This document shows, piece by piece, positions 14,788 through 62,993 of a stretch of DNA of 64,000 nucleotides; position 1 is the stretch's first letter; every line of letters begins with the position of its first letter. Position numbers and translations under genes: made by a program. The stretch is from a bacterium (GTDB lineage: Bacteria; UBP6; JAFGXH01): contig JAMOQH010000182.1 in NCBI GenBank assembly GCA_027064085.1, positions 9,697 to 73,696 of the forward strand. The letters run 5' to 3'. Below the pieces are notes generated by a model that saw only the letters and a list, made by a program, of their open reading frames with translations, was not told the origin of the DNA and made no database searches.

Positions 14788-14821
14788 ACTTTTCATAACC
14801 AGTAAACTGTTTATTACAAGT
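14788..14821 (+). repeat. Structured hairpin element, copy 1
   Basis: Starts on the base after the gdhA stop. Outer stem ACTT/AAGT (14788-14791 with 14818-14821), internal loop TTC opposite TAC, stem ATAA/TTAT, C-T mismatch, inner stem CAG/CTG closed by loop TAAA. The same architecture occurs four more times in the window with different but still pairing stems. Confidence 0.65.
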
Positions 14822-14918
14822 ATCGTTCAACTAATAGAAAATGTAAAATTTTATATTATTTTCACTCTTATAAATTAATCGAGGTTTAATTTATGATTTA
14901 GTATGACAATGGATATAT

Positions 14919-15416
14919 ATGATTATTGTTCCTAAAAGTACAAAGAAATATAACAGAAAGTCAATTCGTTTAAATGGTTATGATTATGCCCAAGGTGGAT
15001 TATATTTTATTACAATAAATACATATCATAATCAATATTTATTTGGTGAAATCAAGAATGAAGTAATGATATTAAATGCGCCTGGAAAAATGATAAATGC
15101 AATGTTTAGTGAAATTGAAAATGAGTTTGAGTATGTTATTATTACAGAATCTGTTGTAATGCCTAATCATGTTCATTTTATTGTTAAAATAGCAGGAAAG
15201 CCTAATAATATCGTATCATTAGGTGATGTAATTCAAATGTTCAAACGATATTCAACAGTTAAATATATTGAAAACGTAAAAAAGAATAATTGGGGTAGGT
15301 TTATTGGTAAAGTTTGGCATAGAAATTATTATGAACACATAATCAGAAATGAAAAGGATTATGAAAGAATAGCCAAATATGTAAGAGAAAATCCAAAGAA
15401 TTGGGGTAGAAAATAG
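14919..15416 (+). CDS. REP-associated tyrosine transposase (RAYT), Y1 family, copy 1
   Basis: 165 residues. The N-terminus (RKSIRLNGYDYAQGGLYFIT) and MPNHVHFIV with the HUH metal pair at residues 84-86 mark a Y1-type single-strand transposase, with a helix carrying FKRYSTVKYI (Tyr111 is the candidate nucleophile) and the C-terminal signature IIRNEKDYERIAKYVRENP. RAYTs nick and move REP hairpins as single strands; they are usually domesticated single-copy genes. The full family length suggests it is intact. It lies 97 bases downstream of structured hairpin copy 1 and just upstream of another hairpin at 15438. No strong ribosome-binding site is visible. Confidence 0.88.
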   Translation: MIIVPKSTKKYNRKSIRLNGYDYAQGGLYFITINTYHNQYLFGEIKNEVMILNAPGKMINAMFSEIENEFEYVIITESVVMPNHVHFIVKIAGKPNNIVSLGDVIQMFKRYSTVKYIENVKKNNWGRFIGKVWHRNYYEHIIRNEKDYERIAKYVRENPKNWGRK

Positions 15417-15437
15417 ATTCCCAAAAAAATGTAGTAG

Positions 15438-15458
15438 GGGTAGATTCCATATCTACCC
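15438..15458. repeat. REP-like hairpin after RAYT 1
   Basis: GGGTAGAT, loop TCCAT, ATCTACCC: a perfect 8-bp stem preceded by GTAGTAG. Lying 21 bases after the RAYT stop, it is a natural candidate REP substrate. A partial similar segment (AGATATGGAATGGGG) occurs just before the next gene, at about 15567. Confidence 0.5.
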
Positions 15459-15587
15459 AAAAGGATAGAAAAGGGAAAAAAGGGAATAAAAATATGATAA
15501 TATAGGAAAAAGAAGGGATTAAAAATATGATAATTAGAAGGCCGATGGAATCATTGGGGCAGATATAGATATGGAATGGGGGGGGAT

Positions 15588-16331
15588 ATGTGTATTTTTG
15601 CGATATCTATAAACGAGCATACAGAATATAGAATTATTTTGGCCTCAAATAGAGATGAGTTTTTTAATAGAGAGAGCCAAAAGGCTCATTTTTGGAAAAA
15701 AGAAGGGATAATTGCAGGCAAAGATTTAAAAATGGGTGGAACATGGTTAGGTGTGAATAATCAAGATAAAAAGATTGCTATTTTGACTAATTATAGGAAT
15801 CCTTTGCTTGTTAATGTGAATTATAAGTCTCGTGGTATGTTGATTTTAGACTATTTGACTCAGAAAATAGGTGTTGATAATTGGAGAATAAATATAAAAA
15901 AAGAAAAATATAACCCTTTTAATATCATTTTAGGAGATTTCAACAATTTATACTATTACACAAATATAAACAATGAATTAATAAAATTAGAAAATGGCAT
16001 ACATGTATTAAGCAATGGATTTTTAAATGAGCCTTGGCCAAAAGTCAAAAAATTAAGAGAATTATTTACTCAAACAATAAAATCAGATTTTAATCGTCAA
16101 AATTTAATAGAAATTATGAAAGATGAAGAAAAATTTCCAACAAATACTCTTCCTGATACTAATATTTCAAAAGAAATGGAGTATTTTTTATCTTCTATTT
16201 TTATAAATAGTAAAAAATACGGTACAAGGGCAACTACAATTGTAACTGTAGATTATGAAAATAAAGTTAAATTTACTGAAGTATCATATAATAGTAAAAA
16301 AGAAATTATTTCTTATATTGATCTAAAGTAA
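15588..16331 (+). CDS. NRDE (TANGO2-like) family protein
   Basis: 247 residues from the ATG giving MCIFAI; the family starts Met-Cys, so the upstream ATG at 15576 is rejected. ASNRDEFFNR carries the Asn-Arg-Asp-Glu signature (about residue 22), followed by GGTWLGVN and ILTNYRNP, all typical of the NRDE/TANGO2 family. The Cys2-first arrangement and the fold resemble Ntn hydrolases; TANGO2 has been linked to haem or lipid handling, but the bacterial role is undefined. The 3' end overlaps the convergent gene at 16306 by 26 bases. Standalone; runs of G upstream serve as its ribosome-binding site. Confidence 0.85.
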   Translation: MCIFAISINEHTEYRIILASNRDEFFNRESQKAHFWKKEGIIAGKDLKMGGTWLGVNNQDKKIAILTNYRNPLLVNVNYKSRGMLILDYLTQKIGVDNWRINIKKEKYNPFNIILGDFNNLYYYTNINNELIKLENGIHVLSNGFLNEPWPKVKKLRELFTQTIKSDFNRQNLIEIMKDEEKFPTNTLPDTNISKEMEYFLSSIFINSKKYGTRATTIVTVDYENKVKFTEVSYNSKKEIISYIDLK

Positions 16332-18459
16332 AATATTTAACCTTACCTCCTTCTCTAATCCTTAAAACATAATTAGCTGGAACATCTGTTAAAATTGTTT
16401 CATCATGAGTTTTGTTTGGCCATTTAATGGTAATTTTATCAGCTTTACAATTGTCATCAATACCGATAATTACAAATGGGTCTTTTTGAATACCAAATAA
16501 ACCATATCCTCCTTGAATTACTCTTGTATATTTTTTGCCATTTGCTTCTACTATTATTTTAGCTCCAATTGCATCACTATTTGATTTTCCTTCATAACCA
16601 GCTCCCTTAATGTCAATCATAATTTTATTGCTATTTTGGCCTGTTTTGTTTTTAAAAAGATGAACATAACTATCTGTTGGTTTATTAATTGCTTCATCTC
16701 CTGTACTCCAACGCATTAAAGAACGCCCCATTAAAATATCATAATCTCCATCTCTATCATAATCTATTAATGCAATACCATGAGCTCTTATAAATTTTAA
16801 ACCACTATCTTCTGTTACATTAATAAATTTAACATTATCAGTTTGTTCATAAATCAAGCTTGATGTACCTGGATAATCAGAAGAAGTAATTACAATATCA
16901 ATTTTGCCATCATTATTTAAATCTTCTGCAACTCCACCCAAGTCACCATCATTCCAAGAGCCTTCTCTAGTTCTTGTTATGCCACTTTGTGCTTCATTAA
17001 TTCTTTCTAATGGAGTATTAGGAAAGCCATTATTTATTAATAATTGTGTTTTATCAGATGATGCCCCAATATGCCAATGAGCTAATTCTATAGAAAGCAA
17101 ATCGTTATCACCATCATTATCAAAATCAGCACATAGCGAATTACTTGTATTCCCTCCAAGTCTAAAAGGTTTATCATCAAAACCTATATTCCAATTGTTT
17201 TCTAGGCCCGTACAATTAATAAGAGGTGCTTTTGCATTTGCACATTCTGAAACACCACTATGATTTGCACAATAACAAGCAAAAAATTGATTATCAATAA
17301 AGTTTTCAATATTATCATGAGCGAAATTACTCTCAATTGATTTATTTATATATTTCCCATTATTATACATAAATAATAAATTATTTTGACGCCCATAAGA
17401 AGATACTAAAATTTCTTCATATCCATCATTATTTAAATCGCATGCGTTTGCTCCCCAAGAAGGAGTATTGCTATTAGCATTCATCGCTTCTTCTATTGAA
17501 AACGGTTCCGTTTTAATGCCCATTTCTCCCGTTACATCAGTAAATATGCCATTCCCATCACCTTTATAAAGAGTGTCTGTTAAAGTTGAATCTAATACAC
17601 CATAAGTTGAATAATGATGTGCAACAAAGAGATCTAGGTTTGAATCTTTATCATAATCAAGAAAAAGAGCTGAAGAAGCAGGGTTATACATAGTATCAGG
17701 AGAAAATTTTTGTTCTCTAGCAATAGTAAATATACCATTTCCATTATTAAGAAATATACTTGTTTTATCTAATCTAGTATTTGCCGCGCTATCTAAATAT
17801 GCAATATTAATTGCATCTGGATATTGGTCATTATTTATATCTCCAAAAATCACATAAGATGATATTCTACCACTATTTGTATCTTCTCTAGTTTTAAATA
17901 ATCCAGATTGCCAAGTATAGTTTTCAAAAACTCCTTTATTATTTCTAAATAAGGCATATTGATATTTTGGATCTGATTTATCATATCTTGTTTTAGCTCC
18001 TTTAGTAACAACAAAGTCAGGCCAATGGTCTTGGTCTATGTCAGTAACGGTAATGTTAGTTCCAATTACTCTTTTATCTTTAAATTGTAAGCTACTTGTA
18101 ATATCTTCGAATTGAATTTTCTGACTTCCATTATTTAAGCATATTGTAGGAGGCTGTTCATTGCAATTTAATCTATCAACATAATAATTATCATAACAGT
18201 TACATTTAGCTTTATCATTTTCAATAATACATTCTCCATGGTTGCTACAATTAATATTAGTACAGGGAGTATTTTCTTTACAACTAAGTCCTTCTTCATG
18301 AAAATTTTCATTACAATTACACTTTGCTTTGTCACCTTCAATAACACATTCTCCGTGATTATTGCAATTTATATCACTACAAGCATTATTTTCACTGCTT
18401 CCACAAGATATAATCATTAAAATTAATGTAAAAAATGTAAAGTTTAGTATTTTATTCAT
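16306..18459 (-). CDS. FG-GAP/VCBS repeat lipoprotein with EGF-like domains and ASPIC/UnbV C-terminus
   Basis: 717 residues. Lipoprotein leader MNKILNFTFFTLILMIISC. Two EGF-like modules follow (about 25-105; CNNHGECVIEGDKAKCNC and CSNHGECIIENDKAKCNC, each with six-cysteine style spacing). From about 120 to 590 come several FG-GAP/VCBS Ca-binding loops (DIDQDHWPDF, DINNDQYPDA, DYDKDSNLDL, DLNNDGYEEI, DFDNDGDNDL, DLNNDGKIDI, DYDRDGDYDI), forming a beta-propeller. The C-terminus (GAKIIVEANGKKYTRVIQGG, KITIKWPN) matches the ASPIC/UnbV domain that often ends such proteins. It is a calcium-binding surface protein, probably for adhesion or polymer binding (inference). Tail-to-tail overlap with the NRDE gene. 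Confidence 0.85.
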   Translation of the reverse strand: MNKILNFTFFTLILMIISCGSSENNACSDINCNNHGECVIEGDKAKCNCNENFHEEGLSCKENTPCTNINCSNHGECIIENDKAKCNCYDNYYVDRLNCNEQPPTICLNNGSQKIQFEDITSSLQFKDKRVIGTNITVTDIDQDHWPDFVVTKGAKTRYDKSDPKYQYALFRNNKGVFENYTWQSGLFKTREDTNSGRISSYVIFGDINNDQYPDAINIAYLDSAANTRLDKTSIFLNNGNGIFTIAREQKFSPDTMYNPASSALFLDYDKDSNLDLFVAHHYSTYGVLDSTLTDTLYKGDGNGIFTDVTGEMGIKTEPFSIEEAMNANSNTPSWGANACDLNNDGYEEILVSSYGRQNNLLFMYNNGKYINKSIESNFAHDNIENFIDNQFFACYCANHSGVSECANAKAPLINCTGLENNWNIGFDDKPFRLGGNTSNSLCADFDNDGDNDLLSIELAHWHIGASSDKTQLLINNGFPNTPLERINEAQSGITRTREGSWNDGDLGGVAEDLNNDGKIDIVITSSDYPGTSSLIYEQTDNVKFINVTEDSGLKFIRAHGIALIDYDRDGDYDILMGRSLMRWSTGDEAINKPTDSYVHLFKNKTGQNSNKIMIDIKGAGYEGKSNSDAIGAKIIVEANGKKYTRVIQGGYGLFGIQKDPFVIIGIDDNCKADKITIKWPNKTHDETILTDVPANYVLRIREGGKVKYFTLDQYKK

Positions 18460-18546
18460 ATTATCTCCTAAAATATTTTAAATATTACTACACTTATTAA
18501 TAAATTACAATTATGATATGATTAAAATCAGATATTCTCTTAAAAG

Positions 18547-19455
18547 TTATTTTTTTAGCTTTATAAAATCTGTAAAACTTGATGTTAATAATTGTCTTGC
18601 TAGCTTGTTTGCCTTTTTTATTTGTTCTTTTGATGATAGGCTAGTCCCAAAGGTAATTTGTATTTTACCTCCAGGGATTTCTTCATTGACAACAGGAATA
18701 GTATTTATGATTCCATCAATTACTATTGCTAATCTATGTCCCGCAATTCTTTTTGTTAAATTTGCAAATAATTTTTTACCTTTGTTATTAAATATGAGTA
18801 GTATAGTTGGAGAATTGATATATTTATCAAGACCAACATAAGAATCTTTTATTAAATAGCCTGAAATACTTAAATCATTTTTTAGCACAAATGTTTTATA
18901 GTATAATTTTTTTTTATAACCTTCTTTTTTATAGTAAATTTTATATCCTTTTTTTAACTTTAGTGTTTTAATAAATTCTTTTAAATTATTCTCATCTTTT
19001 GCAGTATCACTTTTAGTTCTGAAAAATCGATATTCTACTCTACCACCTTTAGCTGTATCGTAACTATCTTCACCTGTTGTTATATTATTTGGTAAATTTT
19101 TAGTATTTTTAACTAATTCAGATGAAAGATTAATAGATTCCAAGTCTTCTTCTAGAAAATAAACACTATGCTTTTTAGATAAATCATTTTTTATTTTGTT
19201 TATATTTTCTTTAATTGTAGATATTTTTATTTCTTGATTAGTTCTATTATAATTTATACTTGTTTCTATTTTTGATAAATAATTTTTGATTTTATCATCA
19301 AGATTTTTTAATTTTTCTTTGTTAATAATAGTTGCTTCAAAAGTAATAGATTTTAGTGGTTTAAAATTATTAAAAAATTCTTTGAAATTCTTTGCACTAT
19401 AAATGCTTTGAGTTATTGTTAGTATCAGTAAAATTATTATTATTTTCATTTTCAT
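18547..19455 (-). CDS. Exported stand-alone SecD P1-like domain protein
   Basis: 302 residues with signal peptide (MKMKIIIILLILTITQSIYS). The C-terminal 130 residues read like the periplasmic P1 domain of SecD: DLSISGYLIKDSYVGLDK, PTILLIFNNKGKKLFANLTK, GHRLAIVIDGIINTIPVVNE and PGGKIQITFGTSLSSKEQI correspond to the family pattern (LTG.dl.da, GaekFaelT, iGk.lAIvlDg.v.saP.i). The six-helix SecD membrane channel is absent. In SecD the P1 head helps pull translocated proteins; a soluble copy could assist periplasmic release or be repurposed (inference). RBS GGAGA precedes the ATG. It is followed 87 bases on by the FG-GAP gene on the same strand. Confidence 0.7.
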   Translation of the reverse strand: MKMKIIIILLILTITQSIYSAKNFKEFFNNFKPLKSITFEATIINKEKLKNLDDKIKNYLSKIETSINYNRTNQEIKISTIKENINKIKNDLSKKHSVYFLEEDLESINLSSELVKNTKNLPNNITTGEDSYDTAKGGRVEYRFFRTKSDTAKDENNLKEFIKTLKLKKGYKIYYKKEGYKKKLYYKTFVLKNDLSISGYLIKDSYVGLDKYINSPTILLIFNNKGKKLFANLTKRIAGHRLAIVIDGIINTIPVVNEEIPGGKIQITFGTSLSSKEQIKKANKLARQLLTSSFTDFIKLKK

Positions 19456-19627
19456 TTATTCTCCAATGAATAATATTTAACTTAGAAATATCATATCATA
19501 TAAAAAAAGTAAAGATAATCTTACCCAAACTATGCAATTCAGGGATTAATGATTGAATATTTCTTATAAAATTGATTTTTATTTATTTTAAGTGTAAAAT
19601 TACCTAGTTTTTGTTTATGGAGTAGCT

Positions 19628-21166
19628 ATGACATATCATATTAAAAAATTTTTATTTCTAATGAGTTTATCATTAATTGTAATTTCATGTGGTGGTGGTG
19701 GTGGTTCAATTACTGAAGCATGTAATTTAAATTCTGATTGTTCAAAAACACAGGAGTGTAGATTTTCTAGCAAAACTGATAATTCTGGTGAATGTGTAGA
19801 AAAAAAAGTTTGCCAAGAAGATTCGGAATGTTCTGACAAAAGAGCATGTGCGGCTTCTTTAATTGGAACAGAAAAATACTGTGGTGGTTTTTTATCAAAT
19901 TTTAGCTTTAAAGATGGTCAAAACCTAAAATCAGGAACAGTTGATGAAGTATATAATGATACAATTCAATTAATAGGGCAAACAGGTGCGTTTCATATTA
20001 TTGTAAAAACAGGTGATAAATTGCCTGATGGATTAATGATAAATTTAAATACTGGAGACATTTCTGGGACTCCAACAAAAGAAGGTGAGTTTAAATTTAC
20101 TTTAATTGCTTATAATGGTGCTAGTGATGCAAAAAACTATTACAATATTATAAAAGTAGAAAAAGAATTTATCATTAAAATAAATAAGGCAAATGTTTGT
20201 ACTCCTGATTGTACAAATAAAGTATGTGGTGATGATGGCTGTGGTGGAAGTTGTGGAACTTGCACAGAAGGAACTTGTAATAACAGTGGTCAATGTGAAA
20301 CAACATGTACTCCTGATTGTACAAATAAAGTGTGTGGTGATGATGGCTGTGGTGGAAGTTGTGGAACTTGCACAGAAGGAACTTGTAATAACAGTGGTCA
20401 ATGTGAAACAACATGTACTCCTGATTGTACAAATAAAGTGTGTGGCGATGATGGCTGTGGTGGAAGTTGTGGAACTTGTACAGAAGGAACTTGTAATAAT
20501 GATAGTGGCCAATGTGAAACAATATGTACTCCAAGTACTTGTGATGACTTAAGTGCTCAATGTGGTTCTATTGATGATGGCTGTGGAACAATGTTAGAAT
20601 GTGGTGATTGCTATGTAGGAAGTGAATGTATTGATAATTTATGTGAAGTAATTGTTGTAATTAATGAAGGTGATATTATTTTTAGTGAAATAATGGCAAA
20701 TCCTAGTGTTCCAGATGGTCAAGGAGGAGTAATTAATGATTCCAAAACTGAGTGGGTTGAGTTATATAACACTACAGACCACGCAATAGATTTAGATGGT
20801 CTAAAAATAGTAAAAGGAACAACAAATTATGATATTACATTAATTACAACAACAATAGAATCTCATTCTTATTATGTTATTGCAAGAAAAGAAGCAAGTG
20901 TTTCTAAACTACCAATAGTTGATGCAACGGGAGGGTTCTCTTTAACAAATGGAGGAGCGTCTTTACAACTTAAACTTGGAGATACACTACTTGATACAGT
21001 TACTTATCAAGCGGCAACAGAGGGAGCATCTTGGCAATTAGATAAAGATGTTATGGATTTTGAATTAAATGATGATAATGCAGCGTGGTGTTTAGGTACA
21101 ACTGTTATTAGTACAGAAAATACTGATTTAGGAACTCCAGCGCTAGAAAATCTATCTTGCCATTAA
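19628..21166 (+). CDS. Cysteine-repeat lipoprotein with lamin-tail (LTD) domain
   Basis: 512 residues. Lipoprotein leader ends LIVISCGGGGG. Then a Cys-rich segment, a putative Ig-like domain (about 90-185, GLMINLNTGDISGTPTKEGE, the He_PIG style), and three near-identical 36-residue repeats of the CTPDCTNKVCGDDGCGGSCG type (codons 191-299), followed by a divergent fourth (CDDLSAQCGSIDDGCGTMLE). The C-terminal 160 residues (GDIIFSEIMANP, SKTEWVELYNTTDHAIDLDG) are a lamin-tail domain, often found on bacterial secreted nucleases and surface proteins. Probably a surface-anchored adhesive or binding protein. Monocistronic; a hairpin (21182-21199) follows. Confidence 0.85.
   Translation: MTYHIKKFLFLMSLSLIVISCGGGGGSITEACNLNSDCSKTQECRFSSKTDNSGECVEKKVCQEDSECSDKRACAASLIGTEKYCGGFLSNFSFKDGQNLKSGTVDEVYNDTIQLIGQTGAFHIIVKTGDKLPDGLMINLNTGDISGTPTKEGEFKFTLIAYNGASDAKNYYNIIKVEKEFIIKINKANVCTPDCTNKVCGDDGCGGSCGTCTEGTCNNSGQCETTCTPDCTNKVCGDDGCGGSCGTCTEGTCNNSGQCETTCTPDCTNKVCGDDGCGGSCGTCTEGTCNNDSGQCETICTPSTCDDLSAQCGSIDDGCGTMLECGDCYVGSECIDNLCEVIVVINEGDIIFSEIMANPSVPDGQGGVINDSKTEWVELYNTTDHAIDLDGLKIVKGTTNYDITLITTTIESHSYYVIARKEASVSKLPIVDATGGFSLTNGGASLQLKLGDTLLDTVTYQAATEGASWQLDKDVMDFELNDDNAAWCLGTTVISTENTDLGTPALENLSCH
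20198..20524 (+). repeat. Three tandem 108-bp coding repeats
   Basis: Copies at 20198-20305, 20306-20413 and 20414-20524, the last with one extra codon. They differ at only a few bases, including mostly silent positions, so amplification is recent. Each encodes 36 residues with nine or so cysteines. Confidence 0.9.
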
Positions 21167-21181
21167 AAATTATTTTACAAT

Positions 21182-21199
21182 CAATAAATCTATTTATTG
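21182..21199. terminator. AT-rich hairpin after the LTD lipoprotein gene
   Basis: CAATAAAT, loop CT, ATTTATTG, 15 bases past the stop, followed by a T-rich stretch from 21206. A weak intrinsic terminator candidate. The 354 bases between 21167 and 21520 otherwise hold only the frameshifted short frame at 21376. Confidence 0.4.
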
Positions 21200-21375
21200 G
21201 CTACTTATTTTAATTTATAATCTTTACTCCTTGTGATATCATTTGATAAAAATAAAGTTTAAGAATTAAACTTATATTCTAGTGAAGAGAAGAATAAAAC
21301 ACATTTATTTTACTATATAACATTGAATTTTCCATATTTACTTGATATAGTAAGTTGAATTATGGAGAGCTAGAT

Positions 21376-33868: not shown

Positions 33869-33943
33869 CCGTTACAATCACCATGGTTGTCTAAGGGTTA
33901 AACAAAGGAGATATGTAATCTCTCTACATGGTGTTTTACACGG
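33869..33943 (+). repeat. Structured hairpin element, copy 4 (long, branched)
   Basis: Outer stem CCGT/ACGG, internal loop TAC opposite TAC, 2-bp stem AA/TT, T-T mismatch, then 7-bp stem CACCATG/CATGGTG. The roughly 41-base insert holds a further hairpin GAGAT/ATCTC (33908-33922). Same architecture as copies 1, 2, 3 and 5, but the 5' side of the internal loop is TAC instead of TTC. Confidence 0.5.
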
Positions 33944-36889: not shown

Positions 36890-39034
36890 ATGAACAAATT
36901 GATGTTTGTAGCACCAATTGCAGGAGCATTAGCTCTAATTTATGCATTTATTAAAGCATCTGCTGTAAGCAAGGCAGAGGTAGGTGATGAGAGAATGGCA
37001 ACAATTGCTAAAAATATTAGCGTTGGAGCTATGGCTTTTTTAAAGAGAGAATATACTGTTTTAGCTGGTTTTGTAGTAGTAGTAGCTATTGCATTAGGTC
37101 TTTCAAATGCAGGAAAAGAAAATAGTAGTTATTTGATAGCTTTGTCTTTTATTGTTGGAGCGGTTGCATCTGCATTAGCTGGTTATCTAGGGATGAAAGT
37201 TGCTACTAAAGCTAATGTAAGAACAACAAATGCTGCAAGGACAGGGCTTTCTAAAGCTCTTGGCATTGCCTTTGGAGGTGGTGCCGTTATGGGAATGAGC
37301 GTTGTTGGTCTTGCAACTATTGGCTTAGGTGGATTATTTATACTATATTTTAATATATTTGATGGTAATATGCTTAAAATATTAAATGTTTTAACAGGTT
37401 TCTCATTGGGAGCATCTTCAATTGCTTTATTTGCAAGAGTTGGTGGGGGTATTTATACTAAAGCTGCTGATGTTGGTGCTGACTTAGTTGGTAAAGTGGA
37501 AGCAGGTATTCCTGAGGATCATCCTTTGAATCCTGCAACTATTGCTGATAATGTTGGTGATAATGTTGGTGATGTTGCTGGAATGGGTGCTGATTTATTT
37601 GAATCTTATGTTGGTTCAATTGTTGGCTCTATGGTTCTTGGAACTGCTTTTATGCATCATATTACTAATGCTGGTGGAAAGGGATTGAATGCTATTTTAC
37701 TTCCATTAGTATTAGCTGGTCTTGGTATTCTTGTTTCTATAATAGGAACATTTTTTGTTAGAACATCAGAAGGAAAAAATCCTCAAACAGCACTTAATTT
37801 AGGTACATTTGGTGCAGCTGGAATGATGATTGTCGCATCTTACTTTGTAATAGGAATGTTAATACCCTCTGATGTTAAAGCAAGTGTAATGGGAGCAACA
37901 ATGGATGTTTCTGCTCCTTTAGGTATTTTTTTAGCTGTTATTTTTGGCTTGGTTGCGGGTACTTTAATTGGTATTGCAACAGAGTACTATTGTGCGACAG
38001 GTAAAGGTCCTGTTAATGCAATTGCTAAACAATCAGAAACAGGTGCCGCAACAAATATTATTGCGGGTCTTGGGACAGGGATGCAATCAACTGCTCTTCC
38101 AATTCTTTTAATTGCTGCTGCGATTTTAGGCTCTTATGCTTTTGCAGGGCTTTATGGTGTTGCTATTGCTGCGCTTGGAATGCTTTCAACAACAGGTATT
38201 CAGTTGGCAGTTGATGCTTATGGACCAATTGCAGATAATGCAGGTGGTATTGCTGAAATGGCAGGACTTCCTCATGAGGTAAGAGAAAGAACTGATAAAC
38301 TTGATGCCGTTGGTAATACAACAGCAGCTATTGGTAAAGGTTTTGCTATTGGTAGTGCTGCACTTACTGCACTAGCATTATTTTCAGCTTATATGCAACA
38401 AACAGGAGTTAAAACCATTAATCTTGCAGACCCTAAAGTTATGGCAGGTTTGTTTGTTGGTGGAATGATTCCTTTCTTATTTTCCTCAATGGCAATGAAT
38501 GCTGTTGGTAGAGCAGCTATGGCAATGATTAGAGAAGTACAAAGACAATTTAAAGATATTCCTGAGTTAAAAGCAGCTCTTGAAGTTATGAAAAGAAATG
38601 ATAACGATGTTGATAAAATGAATGAAGCAGACCTTGCAGTTTTTAATGAAGCTGATGGTAAAGCAGAGTATTCAAAATGTGTTGATATTTCAACTGGTGC
38701 AGCAATTAAAGAAATGGTTATGCCTGGTTTACTTGCCATAGTTATTCCAGTGTTAGTTGGTTTTTTTGGTGGAAAAGTTATGCTTGGAGGACTTCTTGCA
38801 GGGGTTACTGTAACAGGAGTTTTAATGGCTCTTTTTATGTCAAATGCTGGTGGAGCATGGGATAATGCTAAAAAATCAATTGAAGAAGCTGGTAAAAAAG
38901 GAACAGAAGCTCATAAAGCATCAGTAGTTGGTGATACTGTTGGTGACCCTTTTAAAGATACAGCTGGTCCTGCACTTAATATCTTAGTTAAGTTAATGAG
39001 TGTTGTTGCTCTTACGATTGCTCCATTATTATAG
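36890..39034 (+). CDS. hppA: Membrane-bound pyrophosphatase, ion-pumping
   Basis: 714 residues, about 16 transmembrane helices. Diagnostic motifs: the PPi/Mg site [49 protein letters not shown] and [14 protein letters not shown], and [20 protein letters not shown] near the C-terminus. The GNTTAA form (Ala, not Lys) marks the K+-dependent subfamily. The ion pumped, Na+ or H+, cannot be decided from these motifs alone. It couples PPi hydrolysis to a membrane ion gradient. It directly follows pth. A structured element begins on the last base of the stop codon. Confidence 0.95.
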
Positions 39035-39104
39035 CCTTTCATAACCAATTTGGCATGGCCAAAGGGTGAACACAAGATTCGCCCCTACATTGTTTATTAC
39101 AGGC
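39034..39104 (+). repeat. Structured hairpin element, copy 2, with REP-like insert
   Basis: Outer stem GCCT/AGGC starts on the G of the hppA stop codon; internal loop TTC opposite TAC; stem ATAA/TTAT; C-T mismatch; stem CAAT/ATTG. The 39-base insert holds two hairpins, TTGGC/GCCAA and GGGTGAA/TTCGCCC, the second on its reverse strand reading GTAGGGGCGAATC, a typical REP head. The 331-base gap 39035-39365 otherwise holds only A/T-rich sequence and small dyads such as ATAGATA/TATCTAT near 39267. Confidence 0.6.
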
Positions 39105-39365
39105 AAAATTTCACTAAATTTATAAAAAATTCATTAAAATTTTAGCACTCAACCAATATAAATATTGTTTTCGCTTTGTTGAAAATATAATATTTTCTTG
39201 ATTTACACATAAAGACACAATTTATTTGACACTACCACAAAAATGATGTGTACCCCTAAAAATAGATAGATTTTATTTATCTATATTCTAAGGCGATTTT
39301 TATAATAATACTTATTTATTTAATATTTATATGATATAATCACTTTTTTAGCTTAAGGAAGCCAA

Positions 39366-51800: not shown

Positions 51801-52553
51801 ATGAACAATAAATTATTATTTAGAAATAAATACAGAATTCCATCAACAAGATTAATTGGTTGGGATTATTCGTCAGAAGGAATTTATTTTATAACGATAA
51901 ATACCAAATATGGTATTAATTATTTTGGAAAAATAATTAATAAAAAAATGTATTTAAATGATATTGGTAAAATTATAAAAAAATATTGGTACGAAATCCC
52001 AAATCATTTTTCAAATATAAAATTAGATGAATTCATAATAATGCCAGATCATATTCATGGAATTATAATAATCCGTAGAGACGATGGCACTGCCTCGTCT
52101 CTGAATAATAAAAAGAATATCAATATCAAAGATAATATTGAGAATAAAAAGAATATCAATATCAAAGATAATATTGAGAATAAAAAGAATATCAATATCA
52201 AAGATAATATTGAGAATAAAAAGAATATTAATAATAAAGATAATATTAATAATAAAGATATTAAAGATAATAAAGATATTAAAGATAATATCAATATCAA
52301 AGAGAATAATAATATTTATCAAAATATTAATATGAGACAAGGCAATGCCTTGTCTGTACGGGGGGTGGGTGGATCTATTTCTGCAATAATAGGATCATAT
52401 AAATCAATTTGTACCAAAAAAATAAATAAATTTTATCCTAAAATTTATTTTAAATGGCATTCTAGATTTTATGATAGAATTATAAGAAATGAAAAAGAGC
52501 TATATAATGTAAGAAATTATATAATTAATAATCCCATTAATTATATAAAATAG
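51801..52553 (+). CDS. RAYT transposase, copy 2, with in-frame REP palindromes and tandem repeat
   Basis: 250 residues. N-terminus (IPSTRLIGWDYSSEGIYFIT), HUH motif MPDHIHGII (HIH at 84-86) and C-terminus (FKWHSRFYDRIIRNEKELYN, VRNYIINNPINYIK) match RAYT copy 1 and the family. Between about residues 92 and 190 lies an extra insertion: a REP palindrome (DDGTASSLN), three 12-residue NKKNINIKDNIE repeats plus degenerate ones, and a second REP palindrome in inverted orientation (RQGNALSVRG). Reading frame is kept throughout. The insert loops out of the catalytic core, so activity may persist. Compared with the usual 165 residues it is 85 longer. Confidence 0.85.
   Translation: MNNKLLFRNKYRIPSTRLIGWDYSSEGIYFITINTKYGINYFGKIINKKMYLNDIGKIIKKYWYEIPNHFSNIKLDEFIIMPDHIHGIIIIRRDDGTASSLNNKKNINIKDNIENKKNINIKDNIENKKNINIKDNIENKKNINNKDNINNKDIKDNKDIKDNINIKENNNIYQNINMRQGNALSVRGVGGSISAIIGSYKSICTKKINKFYPKIYFKWHSRFYDRIIRNEKELYNVRNYIINNPINYIK
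52073..52360. repeat. Inverted REP pair (REPIN-like) inside RAYT copy 2
   Basis: REP 1: AGAGACGATGGCA (52077-52089) pairs with TGCCTCGTCTCT (52091-52102), 12 bp with one bulged T. REP 2: AGACAAGGCA (52335-52344) pairs exactly with TGCCTTGTCT (52346-52355). Both heads read CCGTA when followed into the hairpin from outside (CCGTAG at the left, CCGTAC on the reverse strand at the right), so they face each other, the arrangement of a REPIN. Confidence 0.7.
52107..52214 (+). repeat. 36-bp in-frame tandem repeat, three copies
   Basis: Identical units at 52107-52142, 52143-52178 and 52179-52214, each coding 12 residues; degenerate copies continue to about 52320. No spacer separates them, so this is not a CRISPR array. 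Confidence 0.9.
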
Positions 52554-52586: not shown

Positions 52587-52611
52587 TCAAAAAAGAAACA
52601 AGCAAAGCTTG
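52587..52611 (-). terminator. Intrinsic terminator after the thioredoxin-lipoprotein gene
   Basis: On the minus strand CAAGC, loop TTT, GCTTG, then TTTCTTTTTT. It follows structured element copy 3. Confidence 0.6.
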
Positions 52612-52622
52612 ATTACTTTTTT

Positions 52623-52654
52623 CTCTGTAATAGACTTTTAAGGCTATGAAAGAG
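52623..52654 (-). repeat. Structured hairpin element, copy 3
   Basis: Minus strand, beginning three bases after the thioredoxin-lipoprotein stop: outer stem CTCT/AGAG, internal loop TTC opposite TAC, stem ATAG/CTAT, C-T mismatch, inner stem CT/AG with loop TAAA. Confidence 0.65.
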
Positions 52655-57392: not shown

Positions 57393-57799
57393 AAATTTTC
57401 GCTCTCTGTTATCAAATTTATATTACTAACTCCGGAATTTCTAACAACAGACATAATTTTTACAACAAATCCATAAGGAAGTGTTTTATCTGCTTCTAAA
57501 TATATCTCTTTCTTTTCTTGTAATTTTGTATTAGATAATATATTTTTTTTTAGATTATCAAAATTAACGACTTTTCCATCTATAGTAATTTTTTTGGATT
57601 TATCAATGCTCATAGTAATGTATTTTTCATTATCTGTTGGAACTATTTTAGATGATGTTTTAGGCAAATTAATTTGTTCCCCTTGCTGAATCATTGGGGC
57701 TGCGACCATAAAAATAATAAGCAATACAAGCATAACATCAACCATTGGAGTAATATTTATATCACTAAAGCCCTCTTTTTTATTTCCTGAAAATGCCAT
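57389..57799 (-). CDS. ExbD/TolR-family motor component
   Basis: 136 residues. DINITPMVDVMLVLLIIFMV contains the transmembrane helix with the essential Asp in PMVDVMLVLL, followed by VAAPMIQQGEQINLPKTSS. The periplasmic domain (about 50-130) ends YGFVVKIMSVVRNSGVSNIN. It pairs with the ExbB/TolQ-like product to use the proton gradient. Overlaps the tonB-like gene by four bases and follows exbB by nine bases. Confidence 0.9.
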   Translation of the reverse strand: MAFSGNKKEGFSDINITPMVDVMLVLLIIFMVAAPMIQQGEQINLPKTSSKIVPTDNEKYITMSIDKSKKITIDGKVVNFDNLKKNILSNTKLQEKKEIYLEADKTLPYGFVVKIMSVVRNSGVSNINLITESENL

Positions 57800-57808
57800 A
57801 ATAAACTC

Positions 57809-58525
57809 CTAGTTTTTATCAGAAAAAATATATCTTTTAACAATATTTAAAAAATCTTTTTCAAAATTTTCCATATCTGATATCTGCACCCTGATTTTAT
57901 CAGAATAAAAGTTGTAGGCAATAACCGCGGGTATTGCAGCAAATAGTCCGATTGCAGTAGCAATTAATGCTTCTGCAATACCCGGAGCAACAGTTAATAA
58001 TGAGGCAGAACCCTTTGAAGCAATATTTATAAAAGATGACATAATGCCCCAAACAGTACCAAGTAAACCTACAAAGGGAGCCGTTGAGCCTATAGTCGCT
58101 AAATAAGGAACAAGTGACTCAAGGCTATTAGCTTGAGTAGTGATAGCTTTTCTTAGGGTTCTTGAAATATAGTCCAAATCTCCCTCTTTGGTCTCTCCTG
58201 TTTTTTTTATATTTTCAAGTTCTTCATAGGCTGCTATAAATATTTTAGCAATGGGAGAATATGTCAATTCTTTTGCTTTATCATAAGATGAATCTAAAGC
58301 TCTTTCCTTCCAAAAAAAATCTAAAAACTCATTACTTTGTTTGTGGGCATTTTTTAAATAAAAATATTTATAAAAAATAATAAAAATTGATGCAAGACTA
58401 GAGAGAGCTAACACTATTAGTATAAATAAAACTAAACCTTTAGAATCTCCTAATATTCCTATAATACTCATTTCTTGAGCTTTTTCTGCTGATTTTGTTG
58501 CTAGTTCAATAGCAATTGAGTTCAT
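57809..58525 (-). CDS. ExbB/TolQ-family motor component
   Basis: 238 residues with three transmembrane helices. The cytoplasmic loop and GTVWGIMSSF, SAAPFVGLLG-like STAPFVGLLGTVWGIMSSFI and PGIAEALIATAIGLFAAIPA motifs are characteristic. It forms the pentameric pump around the ExbD helices. First gene of a three-gene operon with no regulatory dyad obvious upstream; the gap contains a short A/T hairpin at 58561-58579. Confidence 0.92.
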   Translation of the reverse strand: MNSIAIELATKSAEKAQEMSIIGILGDSKGLVLFILIVLALSSLASIFIIFYKYFYLKNAHKQSNEFLDFFWKERALDSSYDKAKELTYSPIAKIFIAAYEELENIKKTGETKEGDLDYISRTLRKAITTQANSLESLVPYLATIGSTAPFVGLLGTVWGIMSSFINIASKGSASLLTVAPGIAEALIATAIGLFAAIPAVIAYNFYSDKIRVQISDMENFEKDFLNIVKRYIFSDKN

Positions 58526-58598
58526 TTTTCCTCCAAATATAATACCTTAGATATATTTACAATTTTTTAACAAAAAATTCCACTTTTTAGAGATATAA

Positions 58599-59045
58599 TT
58601 AACTTGCACAAGAAACAGCATCACATGTTGACTCAACACAAAGCATTCCTGTTTCAAGTTTGTAGCCAGGATAACAATTACAATAAATTGTTCTATCTGT
58701 ATCTGATCTGCAAAATCCATTACTTGAACAATCTTTGTTTTCACATGGATTACTTGTGTAAACTTCTTCTCCCTGACAATCTTGACAAGTTTTAATACAA
58801 TTTGTTCCATTGAGGTCATAACCCTCTTTACAAGAGTATTCTATACAGCTACTACCTTGTTCATAATATCCTTCTTCACACATACATCTAATATAATATT
58901 TATGATCAACATAACAAATTCCTTTATTAGAACAAGTTATATTCTTACATTTATCTGTTTGGGTAACACTTGAATCATCACATGATAATAAAATTAACAT
59001 ATTGACTATAAATATAGGTAATAAAATAATGATTTTACTCTTCAT
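58599..59045 (-). CDS. Small EGF-like lipoprotein
   Basis: 148 residues, leader MKSKIIILLPIFIVNMLILLSC. The body is packed with cysteines in EGF-like order: CKNITCSNKGICYVDHKYYI, CMCEEGYYEQGSSCIEYSC, CENKDCSSNGFCRSDTDRT and CNCYPGYKLETGMLCVE. The ATG lies inside the 3' end of the NifX-like gene (11-base overlap), so both are read from one transcript. Short relative of the long EGF lipoproteins at 16306 and 31989. Confidence 0.8.
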   Translation of the reverse strand: MKSKIIILLPIFIVNMLILLSCDDSSVTQTDKCKNITCSNKGICYVDHKYYIRCMCEEGYYEQGSSCIEYSCKEGYDLNGTNCIKTCQDCQGEEVYTSNPCENKDCSSNGFCRSDTDRTIYCNCYPGYKLETGMLCVESTCDAVSCAS

Positions 59046-59445
59046 GATGATGTTCTGGGTGTAAATGGCTTACATTATGATGTGTTTCCATATTATAAGT
59101 ACCATGAGCTTTTAAATTTCCTGATAAATATTCATCATAAGCAGTTTTAACAGTGATATTCATAGCATTTGGAACAACTGCAATATTATTTGATTCAAAA
59201 AGTTGAAAAGCTTTTTGCCCTAATGCTCCTGTAATAAGCATACTTACACCTTCATTCATAAGCATTTTAGGAACCATTCCTGGTTTATGATTTTCACCAG
59301 TCATTTGGTTTTGTAATACCTTAATATCTTTAATATTGAAGTCATTATCAACATCTAAAATTGTAAAAAATGGTGCATGACCAAAATGAGATGCTACTAA
59401 ACTTTCTAGTCCGGTATTTTGTAAAGATGTTACTGCAATTAACAT
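59035..59445 (-). CDS. NifX/NifB-type Fe-Mo cofactor-binding-like protein with His-rich tail
   Basis: 136 residues from the ATG with GGAG upstream. LIAVTSLQNTGLESLVASHF, then GHAPFFTILDVDNDF, MVPKMLMNEGVSMLITGALG and FQLFESNNIAVVPNAMNITV match the dinitrogenase iron-molybdenum cofactor biosynthesis domain, which recurs in non-nif genomes in metal trafficking. The C-terminus has a metal-binding cluster (HHNVSHLHPEHHHEE). No nif gene is nearby, so iron or other metal handling is more likely than nitrogen fixation. Divergent from the hemerythrin-like gene. Confidence 0.82.
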   Translation of the reverse strand: MLIAVTSLQNTGLESLVASHFGHAPFFTILDVDNDFNIKDIKVLQNQMTGENHKPGMVPKMLMNEGVSMLITGALGQKAFQLFESNNIAVVPNAMNITVKTAYDEYLSGNLKAHGTYNMETHHNVSHLHPEHHHEE

Positions 59446-59662
59446 ATTAGCTCCTATAAGAATAATAAGTAAATAAAACAAATGGAGAAACCTCCTATGA
59501 TTTATTTAACTTAAATTATATAAAATATCAAGACTTAGTGTCTTTTATACGATTTTTTCTATTATTTAGACAATAATTTCCTATTTTTAGGTAATTTTAT
59601 AAAAAAAATTGCATAATGATGAGTATAAATCTATAATAAATTTATTAATTATAGGGGGCATA

Positions 59663-60328
59663 ATGAAAAAAGAATTATTTTTTACAGAAAATTTTTTTAA
59701 AGACTTAGATGAGCATCCAGAATTGGTATTGAGCTCAAATAACAAAGTTATAATTAGGGGAACTACAACAATTAAACTTCTTCCCTCTATTTTATTAAAA
59801 TCTTCAGAAAGAAGTTTCTCTATTACAGAAGAAGAAGCAACCAAAAACGGAATTAATATAAATCTAAAAGAAATAAAAATAAAAGATACTTTATATCATA
59901 TTACAAAAGGGTTTTTAGGTAAAAAAGATTTATCACTAATTGAACTTCTTATTGAAGAACATAAAGTATTGCTTTCAACTGTTGGTAAAATTCAAAATGA
60001 ACTTGGAAAACCAGTATGTAATTGCGACGAATTAAATAAATTGCTTAATTTATTATTTGAGCAACTTCTAGAGCATCTTAAAAAAGAGGATACATATCTA
60101 TATAAAAATTACTTAAAAAAACAATCTGTTGTAGAGATTATTAATTTATACAAAGACAGTATGAAACTTATTTCTAAAACAGCAATGAATTACTATAGTA
60201 AATGGAAAAATAACATTAATGAAAGTAATCTTGATGATTTCAAATCAGAAACAGCTGGAATTATTGATGTTCTAGGAAAGAGAATTACTAATGAGGAAGA
60301 AATATTTTTTCCTGAACTATTAAAATAA
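59663..60328 (+). CDS. Hemerythrin-like (HHE) domain protein
   Basis: 221 residues from the ATG preceded by AGGGGGC. The N-terminal 90 residues are of unknown type. The C-terminal domain (about 95-218) carries helices with LLIEEHKVLLSTVGKIQ, LLEHLKKEDTYLYKNYL and ITNEEEIFFPELL, giving the His-Glu pattern of an O-bridged di-iron four-helix bundle, although the third helix histidine is not obvious (AMNYYSKW). Related proteins respond to oxygen or NO or repair iron-sulfur clusters. It lies divergent from the NifX-like protein, which suggests a shared iron theme (inference). Confidence 0.7.
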   Translation: MKKELFFTENFFKDLDEHPELVLSSNNKVIIRGTTTIKLLPSILLKSSERSFSITEEEATKNGININLKEIKIKDTLYHITKGFLGKKDLSLIELLIEEHKVLLSTVGKIQNELGKPVCNCDELNKLLNLLFEQLLEHLKKEDTYLYKNYLKKQSVVEIINLYKDSMKLISKTAMNYYSKWKNNINESNLDDFKSETAGIIDVLGKRITNEEEIFFPELLK

Positions 60329-60381
60329 ATTAAAATAATTATAAGATTAAAACAATTTAAAATAAAAATCTAGGTATAACT

Positions 60382-61953
60382 ATGAAAAGAGAAGATATTA
60401 AGATTGCAGAAAATGAAATTGTAAGTAGAATATTAGAAAATAATCTAAAAAATAAAAAAGCTGAATTGATTGATGTTCTTTATGATATTATTTACAATGA
60501 AAAAAAAAGACTAAAAACAGAGATAAAAGATAAAACTTATCAAAAAGATAAAGAGTTCTTTAAATATATTATCAAAAAATCAAAAAATGCAAATAAATCT
60601 GTTCAAAAGGAATTAATAAAAAAAGTTACAGCGTACTACCTAAATGAAGTAATATCTGAATTTAAGCCTTTTATATATGAAATATCAACAAAAATTCTTC
60701 CTCCTACTATATCTATAATGTTAAATGCTCTTTCGCCTAAAAAAATAATAAAGAATAAATTTACACCTCCTCCTATAGAACACAATGTTATTGTAACTGG
60801 AGAATATAAAAAATTGCAAAAAATATCTAAAAAAGGAACTGTGATTATTGTTCCAACGCATTTAAGTAATTTAGATTCTCCTTTAATAGGGCTTATGATT
60901 TATAAATTAGGATTAGATCCTTTGGTTTATGGTGCTGGATTAAATTTATTTAAAAATAAATTTTTTGGTTTTTTTATGTCTAAGTTAGGTGCATATAAAG
61001 TAGATAGGAGAAAACAATCAATACTTTACAAACAAGTTTTAAAAGAATATGCAACATTTTCATTAGAAAGAGGATATGGAAACTTATTCTTTCCCGGGGG
61101 TACAAGGTCAAGGTCGGGAAAAGTTGAAAATAAACTAAAAAAAGGTTTACTTGGAACAGGTTTAGATGCATATCAAAATAATTTAAAAAATAAAAATGAA
61201 AAACCTGATATCTTTTTTGTACCACTTAACTTAAATTATCAAGTAGTGCTTGAAGCAGAAACTTTAATTGATGATTATTTAGCAGATGCAGGAAAATCTA
61301 GATATATCATAGATGATGATGAGAGTTTCAAAATTTCAAAAATTATGTCATTTATGGAGAAAATGCTGTCTTTAGATGCCAAAATTATACTAAATTTTGG
61401 AGATGCAATAGACCCCTTTGGTAACAAAGTTGATGAAAATGGAAATTCCATAGATAAAAATGGAAATATAATAGATAAGAAAAAATATCTATATGAAAAC
61501 GGTAAACTAGTTGAAGACTCACAAAGAAACAGAGCTTATACAGAAATACTATCAGAAGAAATACTTAAATCTTACAAAAAAAATAATGTAATAATGAGTG
61601 TAAATTTTGTTTCATTTATTGCATTTAAATTATTTGAAAAACAACATGAAAGTAGTGATTTCTATAAGTTCATTAAAGACCCTACCATTGATTTAAGCAT
61701 AAAGTTAAGTAATTTTTATAAAGAAAGCGATATATTACTTAAAAAACTGCATAAAATGCATAAAAATAAGGAGATTACCCTTTCAGAGATACTCTTAGAG
61801 GGTAAATCCGAAGAAATACTTAGTGAAGCTTTAAAGTTTAGCAATTTATTATCTAAAAATTTACCTTTATACCGAAAAGGCATAAGATTATATAGCAATA
61901 ATTTAAAAGTATTATTTTACTATCACAATAGCTTAGATGGATATAAATTTTAA
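60382..61953 (+). CDS. Glycerol-phosphate/lysophosphatidate-type acyltransferase
   Basis: 523 residues. PlsC/PlsB-type acyltransferase core in the middle: VPTHLSNLDSPLIGLMIYKL has the HxxxxD catalytic box and NLFFPGGTRSRSGKVENKL the FPGGTRSR substrate box, with YKVDRRKQS between. Long flanking regions (N-terminal 140 residues, C-terminal about 200 with helices) exceed simple PlsC and match larger myxobacterial acyltransferases. It acylates glycerol-3-phosphate or lysophosphatidate. The gpsA gene follows and overlaps its long frame, giving supply of glycerol-3-phosphate beside its consumer. Confidence 0.85.
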   Translation: MKREDIKIAENEIVSRILENNLKNKKAELIDVLYDIIYNEKKRLKTEIKDKTYQKDKEFFKYIIKKSKNANKSVQKELIKKVTAYYLNEVISEFKPFIYEISTKILPPTISIMLNALSPKKIIKNKFTPPPIEHNVIVTGEYKKLQKISKKGTVIIVPTHLSNLDSPLIGLMIYKLGLDPLVYGAGLNLFKNKFFGFFMSKLGAYKVDRRKQSILYKQVLKEYATFSLERGYGNLFFPGGTRSRSGKVENKLKKGLLGTGLDAYQNNLKNKNEKPDIFFVPLNLNYQVVLEAETLIDDYLADAGKSRYIIDDDESFKISKIMSFMEKMLSLDAKIILNFGDAIDPFGNKVDENGNSIDKNGNIIDKKKYLYENGKLVEDSQRNRAYTEILSEEILKSYKKNNVIMSVNFVSFIAFKLFEKQHESSDFYKFIKDPTIDLSIKLSNFYKESDILLKKLHKMHKNKEITLSEILLEGKSEEILSEALKFSNLLSKNLPLYRKGIRLYSNNLKVLFYYHNSLDGYKF

Positions 61954-61963
61954 AGGGGATATC

Positions 61964-62962
61964 ATGAATTATAAAGTTGGTGTTATAGGTAGCGGTTCTT
62001 GGGGAACAACAGTTGCTCAACTAGTTGCTAAAAATAGCTATGAAGTAAATCTTTATTCAAGAGATAAAAAACAAGTTCAAATTATCAACAAAGAGCATAT
62101 AAATAAAAAGTACTTACCTGAGTTTAAGCTTTCAGAAAACATAAAAGCTTCTAATTCACTAAAAGAGGTTACTAAAAACAGTGATATTATATTTATTGCA
62201 GTACCAAGTAATGCCTTTAGGTCAACTATAAAAAAAATGAGTAATTGCCTAAAACCTGAGCAAATTCTAATAAGTTTAACAAAAGGAATTGAAATTAAAA
62301 CTTATGATGTAATGAGTCAAATTATTTCACAAGAATCATGTATAAAATTAATAGGTGTTTTATCTGGGCCAAATTTAGCTAAAGAAATAATGAAAGAGCA
62401 ACCCGCAGCAACGGTAATTGCTTCAAAATTTGATTTTGTAATAAAAACAGTTAGTAAAATTATATCATCTGATAAATTTATGGTTTTTGCCCAAAGAGAT
62501 GTACTTGGAGTTGAAGTTGCAGGAGCATTAAAAAATGTAATTGCTATTGCTTCCGGCATAGGAGATGGCTTAGGTTTAGGAATTAATGCAACATCATTTT
62601 TAGTAACTCTGGGTATTTCTGAAATAAAATATCTTGCTTTAAAACTTGGAGCTAAACCCGAAACCTTTTACGGACTTGCGGGAACAGGCGATTTAATGGC
62701 AACTTCATTTTCTGTTTTAAGTCGAAATTTTAGATTTGGCAAGCTTATAGGTCAATCAAATGGTGTGGAAGAGGCTCTTAAGTCAGTGGGACAGGTTGTT
62801 GAAGGATATACAACTACAAAGGTAGCTCATTTATTTGCAAAATCGATTAATGTAAATATGCCTATTCTAGATGCTGTTTATAGAATCCTTTATAAAAACA
62901 GTAAAGTTGATGAAGTTCTTGCGGAATTATTAAAAATTAGAAAAGATTATTTATGGGAGTAG
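61964..62962 (+). CDS. gpsA: Glycerol-3-phosphate dehydrogenase [NAD(P)+]
   Basis: 332 residues from the ATG preceded by GGGGAT; a frame opening at 61937 overlaps the acyltransferase. VGVIGSGSWGTTVAQLVAKN is the dinucleotide-binding turn, LTKGIE and LSGPNLAKEI the reaction motifs, then VEVAGALKNVIAIASGIGDG with the catalytic Lys and GLAGTGDLMATSFSVLSRNF. It reduces dihydroxyacetone phosphate to sn-glycerol-3-phosphate for lipid synthesis. Directly after the acyltransferase gene. Its stop codon TAG is the first three bases of structured element copy 5. Confidence 0.95.
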   Translation: MNYKVGVIGSGSWGTTVAQLVAKNSYEVNLYSRDKKQVQIINKEHINKKYLPEFKLSENIKASNSLKEVTKNSDIIFIAVPSNAFRSTIKKMSNCLKPEQILISLTKGIEIKTYDVMSQIISQESCIKLIGVLSGPNLAKEIMKEQPAATVIASKFDFVIKTVSKIISSDKFMVFAQRDVLGVEVAGALKNVIAIASGIGDGLGLGINATSFLVTLGISEIKYLALKLGAKPETFYGLAGTGDLMATSFSVLSRNFRFGKLIGQSNGVEEALKSVGQVVEGYTTTKVAHLFAKSINVNMPILDAVYRILYKNSKVDEVLAELLKIRKDYLWE

Positions 62963-62993
62963 TTTCAAAGTCTTTAACAAGTCTTTTACACTA
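62960..62993 (+). repeat. Structured hairpin element, copy 5
   Basis: Outer stem TAGT/ACTA begins on the gpsA stop codon; internal loop TTC opposite TAC; stem AAAG/CTTT; T-T mismatch; inner stem CTT/AAG with loop TAAC. The second stem differs in sequence from copies 1-3 but pairs perfectly. Confidence 0.65.

What the first reader, a model, noticed from the sequence alone, without database searches (positions are those of the whole stretch)
14788..62993. A five-copy family of short structured elements with conserved 3x3 internal loop and covarying stems
Copies at 14788-14821 (+), 33869-33943 (+), 39034-39104 (+), 52623-52654 (-) and 62960-62993 (+) share one layout: 4-bp outer stem, 3-base internal loop on each side (TTC opposite TAC in four copies, TAC opposite TAC in one), a 4-bp stem (2 bp in the 33869 copy), one C-T or T-T mismatch, an inner stem. 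Outer stems are ACTT/AAGT, CCGT/ACGG, GCCT/AGGC, CTCT/AGAG and TAGT/ACTA; second stems ATAA/TTAT (twice), ATAG/CTAT, AAAG/CTTT and AA/TT; inner stems CAG/CTG, CACCATG/CATGGTG, CAAT/ATTG, CT/AG and CTT/AAG. Sequences change but pairing holds, which is what selection on a structure looks like. Four begin on or within three bases of a stop codon, the fifth 11 bases after; three are followed by a terminator-like hairpin. Seen directly; function is inference: mRNA 3'-end element, or DNA hairpin substrate of the RAYT transposases.
Basis: partly seen in the sequence, partly recalled or inferred. Interest (0 to 1): 0.87.

Follow-up and report, generated by a model that had tools for sequence, protein, structure and literature searches.

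The report
Transposase-linked paired-hairpin DNA repeats
The five elements belong to a family of about 80 to 140 dispersed two-hairpin DNA repeats found in this genome and in none of its sequenced relatives; they sit mostly just after genes and next to REP-type transposase genes, keep their shape while their letters change, and look like a new sort of hairpin-shaped miniature mobile element.

Summary
Two covariance models find at least 77 copies in the 3.65 Mb genome; a 464 kb sample holds 18, suggesting about 140. Of 30 hits chosen only by core sequence, 29 also form the outer stem (113 of 116 pairs Watson-Crick). No convincing copies occur in 27 relatives of the same family or phylum, nor in 71 other genomes. 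The unit is larger than described. Hairpin A (4-bp foot, TNC/TNC internal loop, 2- or 4-bp stem, C.T mismatch, free apex) is followed, usually without spacer, by a second hairpin B (mostly exactly 9 bp, again C.T).

Pairs of dispersed copies are 93-95% identical over A+B with unrelated flanks. The left flank prefers T-run-G. G-U pairs are nearly absent. All four REP-type tyrosine transposases of one family, two of them in the window, have an A element within about 160 bp. This favours a RAYT-linked, REP/BIME-like mobile DNA repeat over a pure mRNA element. It is not a standard REP: no GTAG foot, head-to-tail hairpins, pairing rather than sequence conserved. A co-opted role at mRNA 3' ends remains possible (43 of 65 copies lie within 25 nt of a same-strand stop codon).

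The parts
14788..14821 (+). Hairpin A (A1 type), 0 nt after the stop codon of the glutamate dehydrogenase gene
   Evidence: R1 52.8 bits; position relative to stop
14826..14865 (+). E3-type hairpin (TTC AAC [TAATA...TATTA] TTTTCAC), a looser relative of A
   Evidence: read from sequence, same motif in L002, L005, L006, L068
14870..14894 (+). 9-bp B-like hairpin ATAAATTAA-TCGAGGT-TTAATTTAT
   Evidence: read from sequence
14919..15416 (+). RAYT-family Y1 transposase gene, HUH and Tyr present
   Evidence: PF01797 E 2e-9; NF047646 REP_Tyr_transpos E 1e-21, just under its cut-off; alignment A5
15434..15458 (+). ordinary GTAG-type REP (GTAGGGGTAGATTCCATATCTACCC) 3' of the transposase
33869..33943 (+). 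Hairpin A (A2 type, TAC/TAC loop, T.T mismatch, long apex), 11 nt after a stop codon
33944..33968 (+). Hairpin B, 9 bp, directly abutting A
39034..39104 (+). Hairpin A (A1 type) overlapping the last base of the stop codon of the membrane pyrophosphatase gene; apex carries a REP-like insert
   Evidence: R1 37.8 bits
39064..39088 (-). GTAG-REP-like sequence GTAGGGGCGAATCTTGTGTTCACCC inside the apex of A
   Evidence: read from sequence
39105..39143 (+). second hairpin (AAAATTT...AAATTTT) directly abutting A
51801..52553 (+). RAYT-family Y1 transposase gene with in-frame repeat insert between HUH and Tyr
   Evidence: NF047646 E 5e-15, below its cut-off; PF01797 E 2.7e-4; A5
52589..52622 (-). second hairpin (AAAAAAG...CTTTTTT, 7 bp + bulged T + 2 bp, then mismatch)
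52623..52654 (-). Hairpin A (A1 type), 3 nt after the stop codon of a thioredoxin-like gene; its 3' side faces the transposase at 51801-52553
   Evidence: R1 45.8 bits
62960..62993 (+). Hairpin A (A1 type) containing the TAG stop of the glycerol-3-phosphate dehydrogenase gene
   Evidence: R1 46.6 bits
62993..63019 (+). Hairpin B, 9 bp with C.T mismatch

Best explanation
A lineage-specific family of REP/BIME-like miniature mobile DNA elements. The unit, about 60-70 bp, is two head-to-tail imperfect hairpins, A then B. It is probably recognised as folded single-stranded DNA by the genome's RAYT-type HUH tyrosine transposases. The fixed features would be read by the protein: the internal loop, the short lower helix, and the C.T mismatch nine (A2, B) or eleven (A1) steps above the foot. 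The foot and apex stems need only pair. The unit lies mostly in intergenic DNA, downstream of a T-run ending in G, and copies close behind stop codons are tolerated or kept. Shown here: copy number, covariation, sharp element ends, mosaic A/B combinations, left-flank preference, RAYT adjacency, restriction to this genome among the 99 compared. Inferred: that RAYT cleaves or moves it, that the substrate is single-stranded DNA, and that the two hairpins act as left and right ends.
For: All four RAYT genes of one kind (C182:24615, C182:61497, C185:19105, C192:20162) have an A element in an adjoining gap; rough chance 5e-6 to 5e-5. Dispersed copies L048/L050 (95%) and L166/L175 (93%) match across A+B and not beyond (flanks 12-38%). 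A and B are exchanged: L059 and L066 share A but not B, L055 and L057 share the second hairpin but not A. Of 54 second hairpins found, 49 abut A with no spacer and 38 of 65 copies have exactly 9 bp. Base -1 is G in 44 of 65 copies against 13% background (p 3e-24), preceded by T-rich DNA, whatever the gene orientation; the right flank shows nothing. G-U pairs: 1 of 300 and 3 of 232. No matches in relatives. Published REPs also lie <20 bp behind ORFs (PMC3733652), and E. coli TnpAREP needs an unpaired bulge and tolerates a swapped upper stem (PMC8266576).
Against: No GTAG or GTGG foot; the nearest is G[TG]A on the complementary strand, inside the internal loop and enclosed by the foot stem. REPINs are inverted; these hairpins are head-to-tail. 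The RAYTs have A close on one side, not both. The same genome has ordinary GTAG REPs, also in-frame within these RAYT genes, so RAYT's own substrate may be those, with A only a neighbour. Sense orientation is favoured (25 against 7 in co-directional gaps, p 0.002), which a pure DNA parasite would not need. No transposition event or empty site was seen.
Confidence: 0.6

Rival explanations
1. An RNA element at mRNA 3' ends: A+B folds in the transcript behind the stop codon and sets the 3' end or stability of the message, perhaps through a protein that reads the TNC/TNC loop and C.U mismatches. It may have begun as a mobile repeat and been co-opted.
For: 43 of 65 copies start within 25 nt of a same-strand stop codon, median 9 nt; divergent gaps are rare (4); co-directional gaps favour sense 25 to 7. 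Some copies contain or supply the stop codon. A precedent is IS605 stem-loops adopted as RNA behind Borrelia lipoprotein genes, PMC2775950.
Against: Almost no G-U pairs, whereas the Borrelia case showed them; 7 antisense, 4 divergent and several unclear copies keep the structure just as well; the left-flank preference is the same in antisense copies; no Rfam match; recent copies at unrelated genes; not conserved in relatives.
Confidence: 0.25
2. Intrinsic transcription terminators of an AT-rich genome, with the shared layout arising by common descent of terminator hairpins.
For: Position behind genes; 13 of 65 copies carry a 7-bp second hairpin, mostly AAAAAAG...CTTTTTT.
Against: TTTTT and AAAAA after A are about equally common (23 and 21 of 65); B stems are AT-rich; elements lie a few tens of nt before the next co-directional start codon (L147, L181, L186); a terminator does not need a conserved internal loop and mismatch.
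Confidence: 0.08
3. attC-like recombination sites of an integron: structure-read, variable apex, placed behind stop codons.
For: Layout (foot, unpaired spacer, stem, variable apex) and position recall attC sites (own knowledge).
Against: No integron integrase over the curated cut-off (best 112 bits against 265; matches lack the middle of the model; all 14 control genomes also give hits below the cut-off); no cassette arrays; housekeeping genes upstream; head-to-tail second hairpin.
Confidence: 0.02

Closest known systems
REP elements of TnpAREP/RAYT (GTAG REPs, REPINs, BIMEs)
   Same: short extragenic imperfect palindromes, many copies, close behind ORFs, mosaic tandem arrangement, next to RAYT genes, mispaired stem with a replaceable upper stem-loop
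   Different: no GTAG/GTGG foot; the foot itself is a covarying stem; TNC/TNC internal loop; head-to-tail rather than inverted; pairing conserved instead of sequence; AT-rich
Atypical secondary structures beside TnpAY1 subclass 2.6 and class 3 genes, and TIRs of TIRYTs (PMC6006769, PMC3733652)
   Same: Y1 transposase genes flanked by non-GTAG structures with further copies in the genome
   Different: the RAYTs here look like subclass 2.4 (NHxH, YIxNNP-like, in-frame REP inserts); the structures in those papers could not be compared base by base (figures not held)
IS200/IS605 ends and their two-hairpin non-autonomous derivatives
   Same: two same-orientation hairpins with a mismatch, conserved short sequence on the left flank only
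   Different: no cargo, no identified right cleavage site, neighbouring transposases of RAYT rather than IS200 type
IS605 stem-loops behind Borrelia lipoprotein genes (PMC2775950)
   Same: transposase-type stem-loops dispersed and sitting at gene 3' ends
   Different: Borrelia copies evolved with G-U pairs as RNA; here G-U is nearly absent

Membership tests
REP element (TnpAREP/RAYT substrate) | short palindrome, high copy number, mostly extragenic | tested here: met
   >=77 copies, nearly all intergenic
REP element (TnpAREP/RAYT substrate) | GTAG or GT[AG]G tetranucleotide at the 5' foot of the hairpin | tested here: not met
   foot is a variable covarying 4-bp stem; only G[TG]A in the internal loop on the complementary strand
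REP element (TnpAREP/RAYT substrate) | RAYT gene flanked by the element | tested here: inconclusive
   4 of 4 RAYTs have A in an adjoining gap, close on one side only
REP element (TnpAREP/RAYT substrate) | cleavage and strand transfer by TnpAREP on single-stranded DNA | not testable with these tools
   needs purified protein
REPIN / BIME | two REPs in inverted orientation | tested here: not met
   A and B carry the C.T mismatch in the same orientation, usually 0 nt apart
RAYT (the neighbouring genes) | HUH motif and catalytic tyrosine, Y---NP signature | tested here: met
   H84, H86, invariant Y138 and NP in A5; TnpAREP 4er8 is the only PDB sequence hit (E 0.004); Pfam Y1_Tnp over cut-off for 14919-15416; NF047646 55.6-77.4 bits, all below the cut-off of 80
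Integron attC site | integron integrase and cassette array | tested here: not met
Known structured RNA (Rfam) | match to a family at its gathering score | tested here: not met
   only a tRNA in the window
Intrinsic terminator | stable hairpin followed by a U-run | tested here: inconclusive
   T-run in about a third of copies, A-run in another third

The most novel reading that the evidence does not exclude
A new class of element recognised by shape: a two-hairpin unit whose stems drift freely as long as they pair, read through a fixed TNC/TNC loop and a C.T mismatch at a set height. A RAYT transposase would mobilise it as a head-to-tail pair, or the host would use it as a general tag behind its messages.
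Probability: 0.35. Interest if true: 0.8.

Novelty: new variant of a known kind. Interest (0 to 1): 0.62.

Why it matters
Repeat families in bacteria are usually found by sequence similarity; this one keeps its shape and changes its letters, so ordinary repeat and Rfam searches would miss it. With four intact RAYT genes and about a hundred copies in one genome, it makes a direct test possible of how these domesticated transposases recognise hairpins, and of how mobile repeats come to sit behind genes.

Tried and rejected
Rfam scan of the window: nothing but a tRNA. Core pattern in 84,980 genomes and in viral contigs: 16 and 3 scattered single hits, about the chance number (hand estimate about 11 for the genomes); in the listed flanks the outer stem does not pair fully. 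R1 against 60 relatives: two weak single hits (G002, G053), taken as chance. R2 against 98 other genomes: none. B-type hairpins in 187 kb of the two same-family genomes: none. Integron integrase: none over cut-off. Empty-site comparison through an operon gene (L186): no usable orthologue in relatives. Structure prediction of the RAYT: the machine was busy and then the job had not finished.

Full report
Observation. The five copies are as described. A structural descriptor with free stems and fixed loops, run on the window plus 400 kb taken from six other contigs, finds the family well above random triplet loops. After likely chance cases are removed, 18 copies remain in 464 kb, which scales to about 140 in the genome; the window itself is rich (5 in 64 kb). 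Covariance models R1 (4-bp middle stem) and R2 (2-bp middle stem) find 27 and 51 copies at E<0.1, at least one of them shared. Only the best 150 first-look candidates were scored, so long-apex copies such as 33869 are missed and the counts are lower bounds.

Anatomy of A. From the foot: a variable 4-bp stem; a 3x3 loop of form TNC facing TNC (TTC or TAC facing TAC or TCC); a stem of 2 bp (AA/TT, AG/CT) or 4 bp (ATAA, ATAG, AAAG and partners); a C.T mismatch (T.T in some copies, a paired A-T in a few); usually a C-G pair; and a free inner stem and apex from 8 to more than 50 nt. In 30 core-pattern hits, selected with no demand on the foot, 29 form it: 113 of 116 pairs are Watson-Crick and one is G-T. 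In alignment A4, 90 cells change on both sides with no broken pair. The base before A is G in 44 of 65 copies, and the base after it is A in 56 of 65.

Second hairpin. In 54 of 65 copies another perfect stem of at least 7 bp follows, in 49 of them with no spacer; the shuffled-flank control gives 6%. Thirty-eight have exactly 9 bp, mostly ending in AG/CT around a C...T-closed loop. Thirteen have 7 bp, mostly AAAAAAG...CTTTTTT, and in many of these a bulged T and two more pairs bring the count to nine steps (the reading of the bulge is mine). In A2 the foot, loop and middle stem also add up to nine positions, so both hairpins place the C.T mismatch at the same height. B also occurs without A. 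No such B hairpins were found in 187 kb of the two same-family genomes.

Dispersal. Two pairs of copies are 93-95% identical over A+B and unrelated on both sides. Others share A but not B, or B but not A, which is the mosaic behaviour known from BIMEs. Some copies carry a GTAG-REP-like sequence in the apex of A (39034, L006, L043; read from sequence), so the apex tolerates insertions.

Position. Of 65 copies, 25 lie in co-directional gaps in sense, 7 in antisense, 23 in convergent and 4 in divergent gaps; 43 start within 25 nt of a same-strand stop, median 9 nt. Closeness to the 3' end of the upstream gene is normal for REPs (PMC3733652); the sense bias is not explained by that. Left of A there is a T-run ending in G (TTG 15 of 65 against 2% background), in antisense copies too; right of B nothing is conserved. 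A target tetranucleotide flanking the left end is how IS200/IS605 elements are placed (PMC6006769).

Transposases. The ORF at 14919-15416 begins 97 bp after copy 1 and matches Y1_Tnp over its cut-off. The ORF at 51801-52553 ends 69 bp from copy 4 and matches more weakly. Two more members lie at C185 and C192, beginning about 145-160 bp after an A element, with its B hairpin in between. All four have the HUH and tyrosine motifs, the other three are 38-47% identical to the first, and all match the NCBIfam REP-associated tyrosine transposase model below its cut-off. Their in-frame repeat inserts between HUH and Tyr (clear in three of four) and their YIxNNP-like signature resemble subclass 2.4 (PMC6006769). 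Four of four adjacent to A is expected about 5e-5 of the time or less if A were placed at random among gaps (assuming about 3,300 gaps). Two of these four genes are in the window that drew attention, so the figure is somewhat optimistic; the C185 and C192 genes are independent of it. Two other Y1 genes, one with REPs of its own (L117) and one apparently without HUH (L119), have no A in an adjoining gap.

DNA or RNA. Three of 232 pairs are G-T in the core-pattern set (probability 0.003 if 5% were expected), and one of 300 in A4. The 5% is an assumed figure for structured RNAs. Templated repair of quasi-palindromes could also keep stems perfect without selection, but it would tend to remove the conserved mismatches as well, and these persist. 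I therefore favour a DNA hairpin read by the transposase, with a possible later use in messages.

Classification. It works like a REP or a minimal IS200/IS605 pair of ends. It fails two defining tests of standard REPs/REPINs (GTAG foot, inverted pairing), so I file it as a new variant of RAYT-linked repeat rather than as a REP.

Noticed in passing
39064-39088; L006:1399-1457; L043:141-192; L068: GTAG-REP-like sequences sit inside the apex of A- or E3-type hairpins, each with its GTA end on the complementary strand, as if the apex were an insertion target.
   Followed up: partly
L117 (G000:C32:4316-4612): Another Y1 transposase flanked on both sides by its own REP (CCCACCAA...GGGG.CCCC...TGATGGTGG), a textbook REPtron unrelated to A.
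   Followed up: no
L119 (G000:C84:11624-11881): 267-aa Y1-family protein with the HUH motif apparently lost, directly upstream of a thioredoxin-reductase-like gene; possibly domesticated.
   Followed up: no
L146:1750-2130: RAYT gene with several in-frame copies of a GTAGGGATAAGGCGTTGCCTTATCC-like repeat between HUH and tyrosine motifs.
   Followed up: no
14826-14865; 39143-39176; L002:270-310; L006:1480-1515: E3 motif TCAAC[C..G]GTTTTCACTC, often followed by a 9-bp hairpin; looks like a third, looser member of the same hairpin superfamily.
   Followed up: partly
L227:1410-1490: An A2 element at the end of an MMPL-type transporter gene supplies its last codons and stop codon.
   Followed up: partly
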